Below are positions 57,527-64,000 of a stretch of DNA of 64,000 nt, one piece after another. Below the pieces are notes generated by a model. That model was not told the DNA's origin. It saw only the letters and a list, made by a program, of their open reading frames with translations, and did no database searches. The first letter of the stretch is position 1; every line of letters starts with the position of its first letter. Made by a program: the position numbers and the translations under genes. This stretch comes from Nitrospirota bacterium (lineage in GTDB: Bacteria; Nitrospirota; Nitrospiria; Nitrospirales; UBA8639). Location of the stretch: positions 1-64,000 of the forward strand of contig JAOTTP010000005.1 in NCBI GenBank assembly GCA_029864405.1, given 5' to 3'.

Positions 57527-57610
57527 TGGCAGATTTTGAAAAAAACTGCCATGGGTGCCCAGGCCATGTCGTAGAGTATTTTCTGAGCCTCGTCTAGAAA
57601 GGAATTGAGT

Positions 57611-58396
57611 ATGCGTCATTCACAGACCTCCATCAAAAATCCGTTGATCAAAGACTGGACCAGCAAATATGGGAAACGCACCAACTTGCAGTTCTTTGAT
57701 GAGGCCTTCGCCTCCTTGCAGAAACAGGGCATTGGGAATCGTGGAATGATGACCGTGGGGCTGATCGGCAGCCGGGATGTTCCCGGACATACCTTACGAA
57801 CGGCCCAATCTATGTTGCGTTGGGATCTACGCCCGAGTTTCTGGTCGCATGTCTTTGTGGTGGCGGAACCGGTGACCTCTCGTACCTCATTGCGGTCTTT
57901 GCCCATTCTTGAAGTGCCGCTCCATCCACGGAATGGGATCTTCCCCAGGCCGGAATGCAATGGCATTAACGAAGGCACATTAGGCTTGTATGAGAATAAA
58001 GATATTGATGCCAATGTTGGATTGATGGCGGTGAGCATGTCGGACGAGGATGCCAAGAAACTTAAGAAACGGGCGGTGAACTGGAATCAGGATCGCATTC
58101 GTTACAATTTTTGGGAGATGTTGGGAGTCTGGCAAAGCTATCTCTGGTCCCAAGGGGCCAAGCGCAATCCGTTGCGGGAAGGCACGCCGATCGCCGCGTC
58201 CTCCTATATTGAATTCATCTTTGAAGGATTGGGTTTGGGCGTGACGCCGGGTACCTCGGAGCGGAATAGTGCCCCTGAGCATCTCTGGAATGCGGCCTGC
58301 TGGTGGCACAAGGCATTCAAGGAGCAAGATCGGAAAGTGGCCGGGATGTTTGTCGCCCGTGACCGCGGGTGTGCCATGGCCTCCTGTAACGAATAG
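57611..58396 (+). CDS. Uncharacterised 261-residue protein
   Basis: I do not recognise it with confidence. It has no signal peptide or membrane segment. GLIGSRDVPGHTLRTAQSMLRWDLRPSFWSHVFVVAEP and a later EGTPIAASSYIEFIFEGLGLG are arranged like the His and Cys halves of permuted NlpC/P60 (YiiX-type) peptidases, but the usual cysteine before the second motif is missing (AASSYIE), so that link is only a suggestion. AAAGGA before the ATG supports the start. It follows the PhoD-like gene, which may share its function. Confidence 0.6.
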   Translation: MRHSQTSIKNPLIKDWTSKYGKRTNLQFFDEAFASLQKQGIGNRGMMTVGLIGSRDVPGHTLRTAQSMLRWDLRPSFWSHVFVVAEPVTSRTSLRSLPILEVPLHPRNGIFPRPECNGINEGTLGLYENKDIDANVGLMAVSMSDEDAKKLKKRAVNWNQDRIRYNFWEMLGVWQSYLWSQGAKRNPLREGTPIAASSYIEFIFEGLGLGVTPGTSERNSAPEHLWNAACWWHKAFKEQDRKVAGMFVARDRGCAMASCNE

Positions 58397-58523: not shown

Positions 58524-58674
58524 CCGTGTCTCATCGTATCCTGGATGGAAGGTCTTTTACCTTCTGTACGGCCAGTTCTCAAGTTTTTTCCTTCCTCCCC
58601 CGGCTTTATTTTTCTGCTCACTGGCATTTATGTGAATGAATGAGAGATGCCGGGTGTCGGCGCGGCAGCCGAGC

Positions 58675-58696
58675 CACTTTTGTTTCGGCAAAAGTG
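58675..58696. repeat. Perfect 8-bp stem hairpin within a repeat-like segment
   Basis: CACTTTTG (58675-58682), loop TTTCGG, CAAAAGTG (58689-58696). No T-run follows. It lies in a segment that resembles common intergenic repeats. Confidence 0.5.
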
Positions 58697-59100
58697 ACCA
58701 AAACCAGTGACGCCCCACCCGTCCTCATGAGATTGCTCGGACTCAAAGCCCAGGAAGGCGGACCAACTCGCGGGGCTCACACAGGCCCGCCAGGAAAAAG
58801 AGCGTCCGATCACGGGACGGGCGGCAGGCGTCGGACCATGGGAAGGGTAGGGGCAGCAGGGAATTAAAAGTTGCAGCCAGCCTTTTCCTTCATCATTTTA
58901 AAGAAAAGAATGCCTTATGGAATTCCTTACAATATTATAATTCTCCCGTTCCATTCCTTCCGCACAGGCTTTACTTTTTTCGAGCCACTGTCCATCATAA
59001 GCGAACGCAGAATTCTTGGATGCTAAGGCTCTGTGTGAAGAGCCAATAGACCAATGTGAGAGGGCCGTAGGGTTAGATAATCAAACCGGGTTCACTTGAG

Positions 59101-62016
59101 ATGCCAAGAGAAATCAATCCCGCTCTTTCTGCAAATCAGCCACGGATTTTCCTGTCTTACGCTCGGAAAGATGGGGAGGCCTTCGCACGTGATCTCCGCC
59201 AAAAACTCACCGCTCACCCCTTCTCCCTCTGGCAGGACCGCACCCAAATGGAAGGGGGCAAAGCCTGGTGGGATCAAATCCTGGAAGCTCTCAAGCAGGT
59301 GGAATATATGGTGCTGGTCATGACTGAAGCCGCATTGGCCTCACCGGTGGTCAGAAAAGAATGGCGGCAGGCCCGCCAGGAAGGGGTCGGCGTCATTCCG
59401 GTCTTCGGTCAACCCGACCTGGATCTGTCTCAACTTCCTCGCTGGATGCGGGATGTGCATTGGGTCCATACCGAGGTTCCCGAGGAATGGACACGTTTCA
59501 TTCGCACGTTGGAAAGCCCCCATCAGGGCACGCGGGTGCCGTTCATGGCCGATGACCTGCCCATTGGGTTTGTGCCCCGGCACAAAGAATTTCAGGAATT
59601 GGCCGGAAGTTTGCTGGACCCTGAACAGGAAGAACCCATCGCCATCACCGCGGCCCTGAAAGGGGCCGGTGGATATGGCAAAACCACACTGGCCAAGGCT
59701 CTCTGCCATGATGACCGGATACAAGAGGCCTTTCACGATGGCATTCTGTGGGTCACCCTTGGGGAACAACCAAATACCATAGCCGGACTGACGAAACTCT
59801 ATGCAGCCTTAACCGAGGAACGTCCCAACTTTGTAGACGAAGAAGATGCGTCGGCCAGGCTGGCGGAAGTCCTGGGAGACAAAGATTGCCTGATGGTGAT
59901 CGACGATGTCTGGAATGCCGTTCATCTGCGTCCGTTCCTGCGTGGAGGCAAGCGCTGCGCGCGGATCATCACCACCAGAGACAGCACCACGCTTCCTGCC
60001 ATCGCCAGATTCCGGGTGCCGGTGGATGCCATGCAACGGCAGGAAGCCTTAGCCCTCTTGGCCTTCGATCTGCCGGCCAGTGCCTTGCGGGAAGGAGAAA
60101 CTGCGGCGCTTCAATCTTTAGCTGCACGATTAGGGGAGTGGCCTTTTCTGTTGAAATTGGCTAATGGCGTTTTGAGGGAGCGGGTAAACACCATGGGGCA
60201 GTCCCTTTCAGCGGCACTCACTTATGTGCAAAAAGCCTTGGACAAGCGTGGCCTCACCGCTTTTGATTCCAGAAATCCAGTCGAACGCAACCAAGCTGTA
60301 GCTGCCACACTCGGAGCCAGCTTCGAACATCTAAAAAAAGACGAACTCTCCCGCTATCAGGAACTCGCCATCTTCCCCGAAGACGTCGAAATCCCACTCA
60401 CCGCGGTAACAAAGCTCTGGGGCACGACCGGTGGTCTGGACGACTTCGATACAGAGGAACTCTGCACGCGGTTGAACCAATTGTCGCTTCTATTAAAATA
60501 CGATCCCACGACTCAACACATCCAACTGCATGACGTGGTGCGGACTTATCTGGAGCAACAAGTTTCCTCGCAATTACCGGCACTCCATGGACAATTTCTG
60601 GATGCCTATGACCTGAAGGATGAACCAGCCAAAGCCGCCCATGATCCTTATCTCTGTCGTCACTTGGCCTATCATCTGGTCAAGGCTGAACGGTGGGAGG
60701 AGCTAAAAACCCTCCTCCTGAATGTGGACTGGCTCTATGCGAAGTTGGAAGTGATGGATGTGCCGGCTCTGCTCTCCGACTTTGACTGGTTACAGAACGA
60801 AAAAATCTTCACCTTGGTCCATGGTGCTATCCGACTTTCAGCGCATATTGTGGGAAAAGATCCGAAGCAACTGGTAGGGCAATTGTTGGGTCGTTTACAA
60901 GCCGATCTTTCTCCTGGAATTCAAAACCTGGTCGAACAGGGAAAACAATGGGAAAAAAGTCCATGGCTTCGACCGCTGCAAGTTCACCTGATTGGTCCCG
61001 GCGGTCCACTCATTCGGACTCTCAGCGGGCATAGTGGCGTTGTGAACGCGGTGGCGGTGACGGCGGATGGGAGGCGGGCGATTTCTGCCTCGTCCGATCA
61101 GACGTGCATCGTGTGGGACCTGCGCACAGGGCAGGGCCTGCATACCCTCACTGGGCACAGTGCCTGGGTGTGGGCGCTCATTGTGACGGCGGATGGGATG
61201 CGAGCGATTTCGGCCTCTGGTGATCAGACGTGCAAGGTGTGGGACCTGTGCACGAGACAGGAACTGCACCCCTTATGGGGGCATCGTGCCTCGGTCAGGG
61301 CGGTGGCGGTAACGGCGGATGGGGCACGAGCCATTTCGGTCTCGGATGATGAGACGTGCATCGTGTGGGACCTACGCACAGGGCAGGGCCTGCACACCTT
61401 ACGGGGGCATAGGGGTTCAGTGAGAGCGGTCCCGGTAACGGCGGATGGCACACGGGCGGTTTCGGCGTCGGGTGATCGGACGTGCATCGTGTGGGACTTG
61501 CGCACGGGGCAGGAGCTGCACACTTTATGGGGGCATAGGGGCTGGGTGGGGGCGGTCGCGGTAACGACGGATGGGAAGCGGGGGATTTCGGCGTTGGAAG
61601 ATAAGACATGCAAAGTGTGGGACCTGTGTACCGGGCAGGAGTTGCACACCTTACGTGGGCATCATGACTCGGTCAGGGCGGTGGCGGTGACGGCGGATGG
61701 CACACGGGCAATTTCGGCCTCGGATTATCGGACGTGCAAAGTGTGGGACATGCGCACGGGGCGGGAGCTGCACACCTTACGGGGGCATAGGGGTTCAGTG
61801 AGAGCGGTCGCGGTAACGGCGGATGGCACACGGGCGATTTCGGCGTCGGAGGATCAGATGTGCAAAGTATGGGACCTGGCCAGTTATGAGGAAGTCGCCA
61901 CCTTTACTGGAGAGAGTGCAATCAACTGCTGTGCAGTTTCTCTTGATGGCAAAACGATTGTGATTGGAGAATCGTCCGGCCGGGTGCATTTCCTTCGTCT
62001 TGAAGGAGTTGATTGA
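59101..62016 (+). CDS. TIR / NB-ARC / WD40 NLR-like protein, probable defence protein
   Basis: A 971-residue three-part protein. Residues 13-140 are a TIR domain (RIFLSYARKDGEAFARDLRQ, SLWQDRTQMEGGKAWW, VEYMVLVMTEAALASPVVRKEW); E87 is at the place of the catalytic glutamate of NAD-cleaving TIRs. Residues about 155-500 are NB-ARC: P-loop GAGGYGKTT with K194, Walker B LMVIDDVW (264-271), TTRD (291-294), GEWPFLLKLANG (345 on), and LHD (476-478) at the MHD position. A helical linker leads to eight WD40 units (638-971). In bacteria such STAND proteins sense a phage product with the repeats and trigger TIR killing by NAD loss; this role is inferred. No ribosome site is clear; no partner genes adjoin. 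Confidence 0.88.
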   Translation: MPREINPALSANQPRIFLSYARKDGEAFARDLRQKLTAHPFSLWQDRTQMEGGKAWWDQILEALKQVEYMVLVMTEAALASPVVRKEWRQARQEGVGVIPVFGQPDLDLSQLPRWMRDVHWVHTEVPEEWTRFIRTLESPHQGTRVPFMADDLPIGFVPRHKEFQELAGSLLDPEQEEPIAITAALKGAGGYGKTTLAKALCHDDRIQEAFHDGILWVTLGEQPNTIAGLTKLYAALTEERPNFVDEEDASARLAEVLGDKDCLMVIDDVWNAVHLRPFLRGGKRCARIITTRDSTTLPAIARFRVPVDAMQRQEALALLAFDLPASALREGETAALQSLAARLGEWPFLLKLANGVLRERVNTMGQSLSAALTYVQKALDKRGLTAFDSRNPVERNQAVAATLGASFEHLKKDELSRYQELAIFPEDVEIPLTAVTKLWGTTGGLDDFDTEELCTRLNQLSLLLKYDPTTQHIQLHDVVRTYLEQQVSSQLPALHGQFLDAYDLKDEPAKAAHDPYLCRHLAYHLVKAERWEELKTLLLNVDWLYAKLEVMDVPALLSDFDWLQNEKIFTLVHGAIRLSAHIVGKDPKQLVGQLLGRLQADLSPGIQNLVEQGKQWEKSPWLRPLQVHLIGPGGPLIRTLSGHSGVVNAVAVTADGRRAISASSDQTCIVWDLRTGQGLHTLTGHSAWVWALIVTADGMRAISASGDQTCKVWDLCTRQELHPLWGHRASVRAVAVTADGARAISVSDDETCIVWDLRTGQGLHTLRGHRGSVRAVPVTADGTRAVSASGDRTCIVWDLRTGQELHTLWGHRGWVGAVAVTTDGKRGISALEDKTCKVWDLCTGQELHTLRGHHDSVRAVAVTADGTRAISASDYRTCKVWDMRTGRELHTLRGHRGSVRAVAVTADGTRAISASEDQMCKVWDLASYEEVATFTGESAINCCAVSLDGKTIVIGESSGRVHFLRLEGVD
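61012..61890 (+). repeat. Array of near-identical 126-bp WD40-coding repeats
   Basis: GTGTGGGAC-type words recur every 126 bases at 61111, 61237, 61363, 61489, 61615, 61741 and 61867 (the last as GTATGGGAC). Each unit codes 42 residues (LHTLxGHxxxVxAVxVTADGxRAISASxDxTCxVWDL). The unit at about 61390 and the one at about 61768 are almost identical for 80 bases. Variation falls at the few positions marked x. Confidence 0.9.
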
Positions 62017-63453: not shown

Positions 63454-63930
63454 TTGAAGCGATTTTCACCGAGATGGCGATCCTTTGCGGCTCATTTACG
63501 TGGGAATCAAAGCGATGCTGAACAGCGGCTCTGGGAAGAAATTCGAGATGGTCAGATCAAGGGATGGAAATTCCGGCGGCAACATCCAATCGGTCGGACT
63601 ATTGTTGATTTTTGTTGTTTGGAAGGGATGCTGATCATTGAGCTGGATGGTGGAGAACAACGAGAACAAGAACCAGCTGATGAGGAGTCCAAGAATTATT
63701 TAACGGCTTTAGGGTTTCGTGTATTGCGATTTTTGAATGATGATGTTCTGACGAAGACTGATGATGTGGTGGAGGAGATTGTGAGAGTTTTAGAAAGTTC
63801 TGATGATTTTCACCCTCACCCTAGCCCTCTCCCTCATAGGGAGAGGGAAACAGAGAATTCTCAGTCCGTTAGTTTCTCTTTTCCAGAGAAAACCCCTCAT
63901 AGGGAGAGGGGATCTGAAATAGGATTGAGG
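63454..63930 (+). CDS. DUF559 nuclease-like frame, open into aguA
   Basis: About 116 residues match DUF559 (Vsr/restriction-endonuclease-like fold): FAAHLRGNQSDAEQRLWEEI, GWKFRRQHPIGRTIVDFCC, MLIIELDGGEQREQE, LTALGFRVLRFLNDDVLTKTDDVVEEI. The D and E...DGG region is the putative metal site. The only possible start after the stop at 63442 is TTG 63454, with AGGGGAAG before it. The tail of about 40 residues is coded by a Pro/Arg-Glu repeat segment and, with no stop codon, the frame continues straight into the aguA codons. Whether one fused protein or two is made cannot be told. DUF559 genes are often near repeats and of unknown role. Confidence 0.72.
63811..63911. repeat. GGGAGAGGG repeat segment between DUF559 and aguA
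   Basis: CCCTCTCCC (63825-63833) pairs with GGGAGAGGG (63839-63847). The 17-base word CCCTCATAGGGAGAGGG occurs at 63831 and again at 63894. Such CCCTCACCCTAGCCCTCTCCC-like units are common intergenic repeats; here the unit is in an open frame. Confidence 0.7.
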
Positions 63931-64000
63931 ATGCCAGCGGAGTGGGAGCAACATGAGGCGACCTGGATGGGATGGCCCCATAATACGAAAGATTGGCCGG
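63931..64000 (+). CDS. aguA: Agmatine deiminase, 5' end only (partial)
   Basis: The first 23 residues read MPAEWEQHEATWMGWPHNTK then DWP, the opening of agmatine deiminase, which converts agmatine to N-carbamoylputrescine. The ATG at 63931 is where homology starts; a GATTGAGG directly before it is a poor ribosome site. The frame is continuous with the upstream DUF559 sequence. The catalytic cysteine lies beyond the window. Pairing with aguB at 62322 strongly supports the call. Confidence 0.85.
   Translation, partial: MPAEWEQHEATWMGWPHNTKDWP

What the first reader, a model, noticed from the sequence alone, without database searches (positions are those of the whole stretch)
59101..62016. Stand-alone TIR-NB-ARC-WD40 protein built like a eukaryotic NLR
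Seen: TIR with a glutamate at the NADase position (E87), full NB-ARC motifs including an LHD at the plant MHD position, and an eight-unit WD40 end. Known: TIR NADases and STAND ATPases are parts of bacterial anti-phage systems. Inferred: this single gene may be a one-protein abortive-infection system sensing a ligand through its propeller. The gene sits alone among repeats, not in a known defence island.
Basis: partly seen in the sequence, partly recalled or inferred. Interest (0 to 1): 0.87.

Follow-up and report, generated by a model that had tools for sequence, protein, structure and literature searches.

The report
Bacterial TIR-NB-ARC-WD40 immune-receptor-like protein
A Nitrospira-like bacterium carries one gene built like an animal or plant cell-death receptor, with an NAD-cutting-type TIR domain, an APAF-1-like switch and a repeat propeller whose blade number varies between close relatives; it is probably a one-protein suicide defence sensor, of a kind already known in outline but untested in this form.

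Summary
ORF 59101-62016 (+, 971 aa) is TIR (E87), NB-ARC (P-loop K194, IDD, ITTR, LHD 476-478) and a WD40 array of 7 canonical units plus a degenerate cap. Residues 154-616 align with APAF-1 through its helical region (E ~1e-23). The TIR profile hits SARM1 and other NADase TIRs. The modelled fold matches full-length APAF-1 first, with one closed 8-bladed propeller.

The gene sits alone between housekeeping genes. Across the genus it fills one fixed slot in 5 genomes, and the slot is empty in 8. The TIR-NB-ARC part is under strong purifying selection (dN/dS ~0.1), while the array turns over: 2, 8, 14 and 16 units in four orthologues. Blade count in this MAG may be affected by repeat mis-assembly.

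Best reading: an autoinhibited APAF-1-like switch that oligomerises when its propeller binds a ligand, then kills or arrests the cell by TIR NAD+ cleavage. Phage defence is likely but not shown; stress-sensing or kin-recognition roles are not excluded. It is a new member of a known kind (bacterial TIR-STAND-WD40/WRAP-type proteins), not a member of E. coli TIR-NLR (TPR end) or Avs.

The parts
59101..62016 (+). TIR-NB-ARC-WD40 protein, 971 aa
   Evidence: ORF; Pfam; orthologues
59146..59475 (+). TIR domain (res 16-125)
   Evidence: TIR_2 E=1.9e-19; family profile hits 9m0n TIR/TPR chain 1.7e-11, SPARTA TIR-APAZ, SARM1 3.4e-9, AbTIR, Cat1, TIR-SAVED
59359..59361 (+). E87, putative catalytic glutamate (VVRKEW)
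   Evidence: invariant in 10 aligned family TIRs; lost to Q/V in three Chloroflexi copies, two of them the first gene of a tandem pair
59590..60096 (+). NB-ARC core (res 164-332)
   Evidence: Pfam NB-ARC E=1.5e-16
59662..59685 (+). P-loop GAGGYGKT, K194
   Evidence: K invariant in aligned homologues
59890..59913 (+). Walker B LMVIDDVW (res 264-271)
   Evidence: alignment
60526..60534 (+). LHD at the plant MHD position (res 476-478)
   Evidence: sequence and alignment
59560..60948 (+). APAF-1-like NBD-HD1-WHD-HD2 region (res 154-616)
   Evidence: phmmer against human APAF1, E 1.9e-23 to 1.2e-22, colinear 154-616 to 123-586
61021..62013 (+). WD40 array (res 641-971): 7 canonical 42-aa units and a degenerate cap
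   Evidence: AF2 model with 8 blades, pLDDT above 90 over most of them; Foldseek to 8-bladed Tako8 TMt 0.94, rmsd 1.7
61891..62013 (+). conserved cap unit ending ...SGRVHFLRLEGVD
   Evidence: same ending in orthologues and, in degenerate form, in Chloroflexi relatives
58640..58860 (.). palindrome-rich element upstream, kept upstream of orthologues; role unknown
   Evidence: blastn 78-89% over 87-125 bp between occupied loci

Best explanation
A single-polypeptide bacterial NLR. At rest the propeller and winged-helix region hold the APAF-1-like ATPase closed with ADP (inferred from APAF-1/STAND biology). A ligand, most likely a phage or other invader product, binds the variable top face of the WD40 propeller. 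The NB-ARC then exchanges nucleotide and oligomerises, bringing TIR domains together. The assembled TIRs cleave NAD+ through E87 and stop or kill the cell before the invader multiplies. Shown here: domains, motifs, conservation, predicted fold, selection, slot occupancy, array turnover. Inferred: nucleotide switching, oligomerisation, NAD cleavage, the ligand, and defence as the purpose.
For: Intact motifs in TIR and NB-ARC. APAF-1-wide homology by sequence, and full-length APAF-1 as top fold match (E 2e-47 over 912 columns). The TIR profile hits only TIR structures, most of them known NADases or anti-phage TIRs: SARM1, SPARTA, Cat1, AbTIR, and 9m0n, an 824-aa TIR/TPR chain. TIR-NB-ARC-HD2 is under purifying selection, dN/dS 0.08-0.12. 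Patchy distribution: 15 of 197 order genomes, 5 occupied and 8 empty copies of one slot. Unit number differs between orthologues: 2, 8, 14, 16. The four WD40 positions that define binding specificity in fungal HET-D/E (PMC1805685) are among the most variable here (p 0.0005). An E. coli TIR-STAND-TPR protein of the same plan blocks phages (PMC9122126).
Against: No defence genes in the neighbourhood, here or consistently in relatives. No copy in the phage collection. The slot is stable chromosome, not a hotspot with exchanged defence genes: empty sites hold 32-420 bp. At the variable WD40 positions dN/dS is 0.73-0.87, relaxed but not above 1, so positive selection is not shown. NADase activity of E87 is by analogy.
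Confidence: 0.6

Rival explanations
1. A cell-intrinsic stress or damage sensor: the propeller reads an internal cue, as APAF-1 reads cytochrome c, and the TIR causes regulated death or dormancy without any phage.
For: Closest body is APAF-1; fixed chromosomal slot between housekeeping genes; no phage-borne copy.
Against: Patchy presence among close relatives and turnover of the sensor array fit a changing external partner better than a constant internal one.
Confidence: 0.17
2. Kin or non-self recognition between cells (as for fungal HET-D/E), killing on contact with a competitor's delivered protein or another strain's allele.
For: Array length differences between orthologues and variability at the same four positions as HET-D/E (PMC1805685); a distant homologue in G094 lies beside type VI secretion genes.
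Against: Unit-unit identity is 68% here, below the 85% level of fungal NLRs with high internal conservation (PMC4986451); dN/dS not above 1; T6SS link seen in one genome only.
Confidence: 0.1
3. The TIR makes a cyclic ADP-ribose signal, or acts as a scaffold, for another effector instead of depleting NAD+ itself.
For: Thoeris-type TIRs signal this way; one NCBIfam model hit is Thoeris ThcB4, over the TIR only. The genome has three other TIR loci beyond the two NLRs.
Against: No partner gene at the locus; stand-alone in all occupied genus genomes.
Confidence: 0.1
4. A dispensable, partly decaying gene or an assembly product: the 8-unit array is a collapsed or chimeric version of a 14-16-unit double propeller.
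For: G030, the best assembly (7 contigs), has 14 units, matching the 14-bladed WRAP structure 2ymu; G091 has only 2 units; G081 is broken by stops; short-read assemblies of such arrays are unreliable (PMC12222747).
Against: Open frame throughout; longest exact repeat in the array is 42 nt, which ordinary k-mers resolve; 8 units make one closed propeller; strong purifying selection on the rest.
Confidence: 0.12

Closest known systems
Bacterial TIR/STAND/WD40 proteins and WRAP-type operons (Leipe 2004; Dunin-Horkawicz 2014, as cited in PMC9218822)
   Same: AP-ATPase/STAND core, TIR effector, recently amplified WD40 blades, frequent disruption; propeller relative 2ymu is among the best fold and sequence matches
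   Different: In cyanobacteria TIR and WRAP propeller sit on two coupled genes; here all are on one gene. Unit identity is lower than in WRAP.
E. coli TIR-NLR of P4 satellites (PMC9122126; probably PDB 9m0n, which has the same 824-aa length as the PADLOC model)
   Same: TIR - STAND NTPase - repeat sensor on one gene; proven anti-phage
   Different: TPR instead of WD40; PADLOC TIR-NLR model hits only the TIR here, 21 bits; carried by a mobile element.
APAF-1
   Same: NBD-HD1-WHD-HD2 order and homology, WD40 sensor
   Different: TIR replaces CARD; one 8-blade propeller as assembled instead of two.
SARM1 TIR NADase
   Same: Best single-sequence TIR match; the family profile covers the glutamate region
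   Different: SARM1 switches by its ARM domain and NAD+/NMN, not by NB-ARC.
Fungal HET-D/HET-E (HNWD) NLRs
   Same: STAND-WD40 with changing repeat number and variable positions 7, 9, 25, 27 (here 12, 14, 30, 32)
   Different: HET effector, NACHT; much higher repeat identity and proven positive selection there.
Swarozyc/TEP1 DUF4062-NACHT-WD40 (PMC13174449)
   Same: TIR-like NADase joined to STAND and WD40 in eukaryotic members
   Different: DUF4062 and NACHT families, not TIR_2 and NB-ARC.

Membership tests
STAND AP-ATPase (NB-ARC) NLR-like proteins | P-loop lysine, Walker B acids, ITTR, GxP and [ML]HD motifs | tested here: met
   K194, D268/D269, T291-R293, GEWP, LHD; aligned with homologues
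STAND AP-ATPase (NB-ARC) NLR-like proteins | Effector - NTPase - repeat sensor order | tested here: met
STAND AP-ATPase (NB-ARC) NLR-like proteins | Ligand-triggered oligomerisation | not testable with these tools
   needs biochemistry
TIR NADases | TIR fold and catalytic glutamate | tested here: met
   Pfam; E87 conserved, aligned with E of 9m0n
TIR NADases | NAD+ cleavage | not testable with these tools
   needs an enzyme assay
E. coli TIR-NLR system | Full-length match including STAND and TPR sensor | tested here: not met
   only res 16-92 match PDLC03015; sensor is WD40
Avs/AVAST | Avs STAND core with TPR sensor | tested here: not met
   no Avs model among PADLOC hits
APAF-1 | NBD-HD1-WHD-HD2 homology | tested here: met
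APAF-1 | N-terminal CARD | tested here: not met
   TIR in that place
Cyanobacterial WRAP/TIR-STAND operon | Two coupled STAND genes | tested here: not met
   single gene in window and genus; tandem pairs only in Chloroflexi L007, L009
Fungal HNWD | High internal repeat conservation (about 85%) | tested here: not met
   mean 68% aa identity, maximum 79%
Fungal HNWD | Diversifying selection at four top-face positions | tested here: inconclusive
   positions more variable than the rest (p 0.0005), but dN/dS 0.73-0.87 for a six-position set
Defence-island system | Neighbouring known defence genes | tested here: not met
   flanks are housekeeping

The most novel reading that the evidence does not exclude
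A HET-E-like recognition receptor in a single-celled Nitrospira relative: blades are gained, lost and reshuffled at one fixed chromosomal slot, so that neighbouring species carry one-propeller, two-propeller or no receptor, giving different non-self specificities.
Probability: 0.12. Interest if true: 0.75.

Novelty: new member of a known kind. Interest (0 to 1): 0.42.

Why it matters
The one-gene bacterial TIR receptor that I found tested in the open-access library uses a TPR sensor. A compact TIR plus APAF-1-like core plus WD40 propeller would let one ask directly whether the APAF-1 plan worked as an antiviral switch before animals. The fixed slot with occupied and empty close relatives and different blade numbers is a natural experiment on how such sensors change.

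Tried and rejected
Known-system assignment by PADLOC and NCBIfam: only TIR-level or partial hits. AfsR-type regulator: the NCBIfam AfsR hit covers only the NB-ARC region, 60 bits against a cut-off of 1430, and there is no DNA-binding domain. Mobile-element carriage: no phage match; plasmid matches are distant, up to 37.5% identity. Defence partners in neighbourhoods of homologues: a PADLOC scan of 41 neighbours gave scattered weak or generic hits and no shared partner. Recent horizontal gain: rejected as the simplest reading, because receptor divergence from G095 (73% nt) is about that of the flanks (76%), while G095 is sister to an empty genome on the flank tree, which points to old presence and repeated loss. 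Promoter/terminator scan gave nothing usable.

Full report
Observation. The open frame at 59101-62016 (+) encodes 971 residues. Pfam places TIR_2 at residues 16-125, NB-ARC at 164-332 and seven WD40 matches after about 640. The repeat end has seven canonical 42-residue units and one degenerate cap unit, eight in all. AlphaFold2 with 13 rows gave mean pLDDT 86 and pTM 0.60, with confident domains and uncertain relative placement. Foldseek put full-length APAF-1 first (E 2e-47 over 912 columns) and matched the propeller to the eight-bladed design Tako8 (TM 0.94 of the target, rmsd 1.7).

Family. Single-sequence search of residues 1-640 aligned 154-616 colinearly with APAF-1 123-586, E about 1e-23, so the relationship covers the whole switch, not only the ATPase. 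A profile of ten family TIRs hit only TIR structures, including the TIR/TPR chain 9m0n, short-Argonaute TIR-APAZ, SARM1, AbTIR and Cat1; in the 9m0n alignment the family glutamate faces a glutamate. 9m0n is 824 residues, the same length as the PADLOC TIR-NLR model, so it is probably that anti-phage protein (inference; PMC9122126). Homologues with the same plan occur in Nitrospirales and Chloroflexota and on a Rhizobium plasmid.

Setting. The window lies in a 186-contig, 66%-complete genome; the nearest records are Nitrospirales/Nitrospira MAGs. Upstream lie BrkB-like, PhoD-like and a 263-residue gene with no family; downstream lie N-carbamoylputrescine amidase and a DUF559-agmatine deiminase. 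The interval between the 263-residue gene and the amidase holds the receptor in five genus genomes (G000, G030, G091, G081, G095) and only 32-420 bp in eight. On a tree of the two flanking genes four occupied genomes group together, while G095 is sister to an empty genome. Receptor and flank divergence to G095 are alike, 73% and 76% nucleotide identity. Old presence with repeated loss is the simplest reading, though transfer together with the flanks is not excluded. G081 carries stops, though at the low coverage of that contig this could be sequencing error.

Evolution. Residues 1-640 have dN/dS 0.08-0.12 between orthologues, so the switch is maintained. The array changes: 8 units here, 14 in G030, 16 in G095, 2 in G091. 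Units 3, 4 and 7 here are closest to other units of the same array, while unit 1 is closest to unit 1 of G030, as expected for internal duplication and loss between fixed ends. In Podospora HET-D/E, codons 7, 9, 25 and 27 of the unit, flanking conserved positions 8 and 26, are under positive selection and lie on the binding face (PMC1805685). The equivalent positions here, 12, 14, 30 and 32 (my register, by the conserved V and D between them), have entropy 1.71 against 0.57 for the rest (p 0.0005), and the same trend holds in six relatives. That is also what any WD40 scaffold tends to show, and dN/dS at these positions together with 10 and 11 is 0.73-0.87. So a variable face is shown, and positive selection is not.

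Blade number. The G030 array gives 14 units, and its best fold match is 2ymu, the 14-bladed WRAP region of a STAND protein, which forms two seven-bladed propellers (PMC9218822). The ancestral plan may therefore be a double propeller, with this gene reduced to one eight-bladed ring. The alternative is assembly collapse, a documented fault for such arrays in short-read assemblies (PMC12222747). The remaining units share no exact repeat above 42 nt, which makes collapse less likely but cannot exclude loss of identical units.

Mechanism. By established STAND and TIR biology, the most likely working is ADP-held autoinhibition, ligand binding on the propeller face, nucleotide exchange, ring assembly and TIR clustering with NAD+ cleavage. 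The one-gene TIR-STAND-TPR of P4 satellites, which protects E. coli from phages, has the same plan (PMC9122126). None of these steps was tested here. Chloroflexi tandem pairs, in which one copy has lost the glutamate and the other keeps it (L007, L009), suggest that some relatives work as mixed assemblies.

Verdict. The protein is real, correctly read and probably a working cell-death receptor. Its kind is known in outline; its sensor type in a one-gene TIR receptor appears untested in the papers I could search. Interest is moderate.

Noticed in passing
L036:6047-9151 (+), G000 contig C74 about 150047-153151: The same genome holds a second TIR-NB-ARC protein, with a TPR end (1035 aa), and three further TIR_2 loci (C31, C33, C137).
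   Followed up: partly
L007:292-8615 and L009:3546-11669: Chloroflexi carry tandem pairs of TIR-NB-ARC-WD40 genes; the first copy has lost the TIR glutamate (V or Q), the second keeps it, and both carry about 140 extra N-terminal residues.
   Followed up: partly
L033:1-16001 (G094): The homologue in G094 lies beside type VI secretion genes (VasE/TssK, FHA, DotU) and a PP2C phosphatase gene.
   Followed up: partly
63454-64000: A DUF559 nuclease-like domain is joined in frame to the start of agmatine deiminase; the join is conserved in the genus.
   Followed up: partly
57605-58396: A 263-aa gene without any Pfam or NCBIfam match, found in 15 of 21 genus genomes next to PhoD-like and aguB.
   Followed up: no
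58640-58860: A palindrome-rich element upstream of the receptor is kept upstream of orthologues at 78-89% identity and was not detected by blastn in the empty sites.
   Followed up: partly
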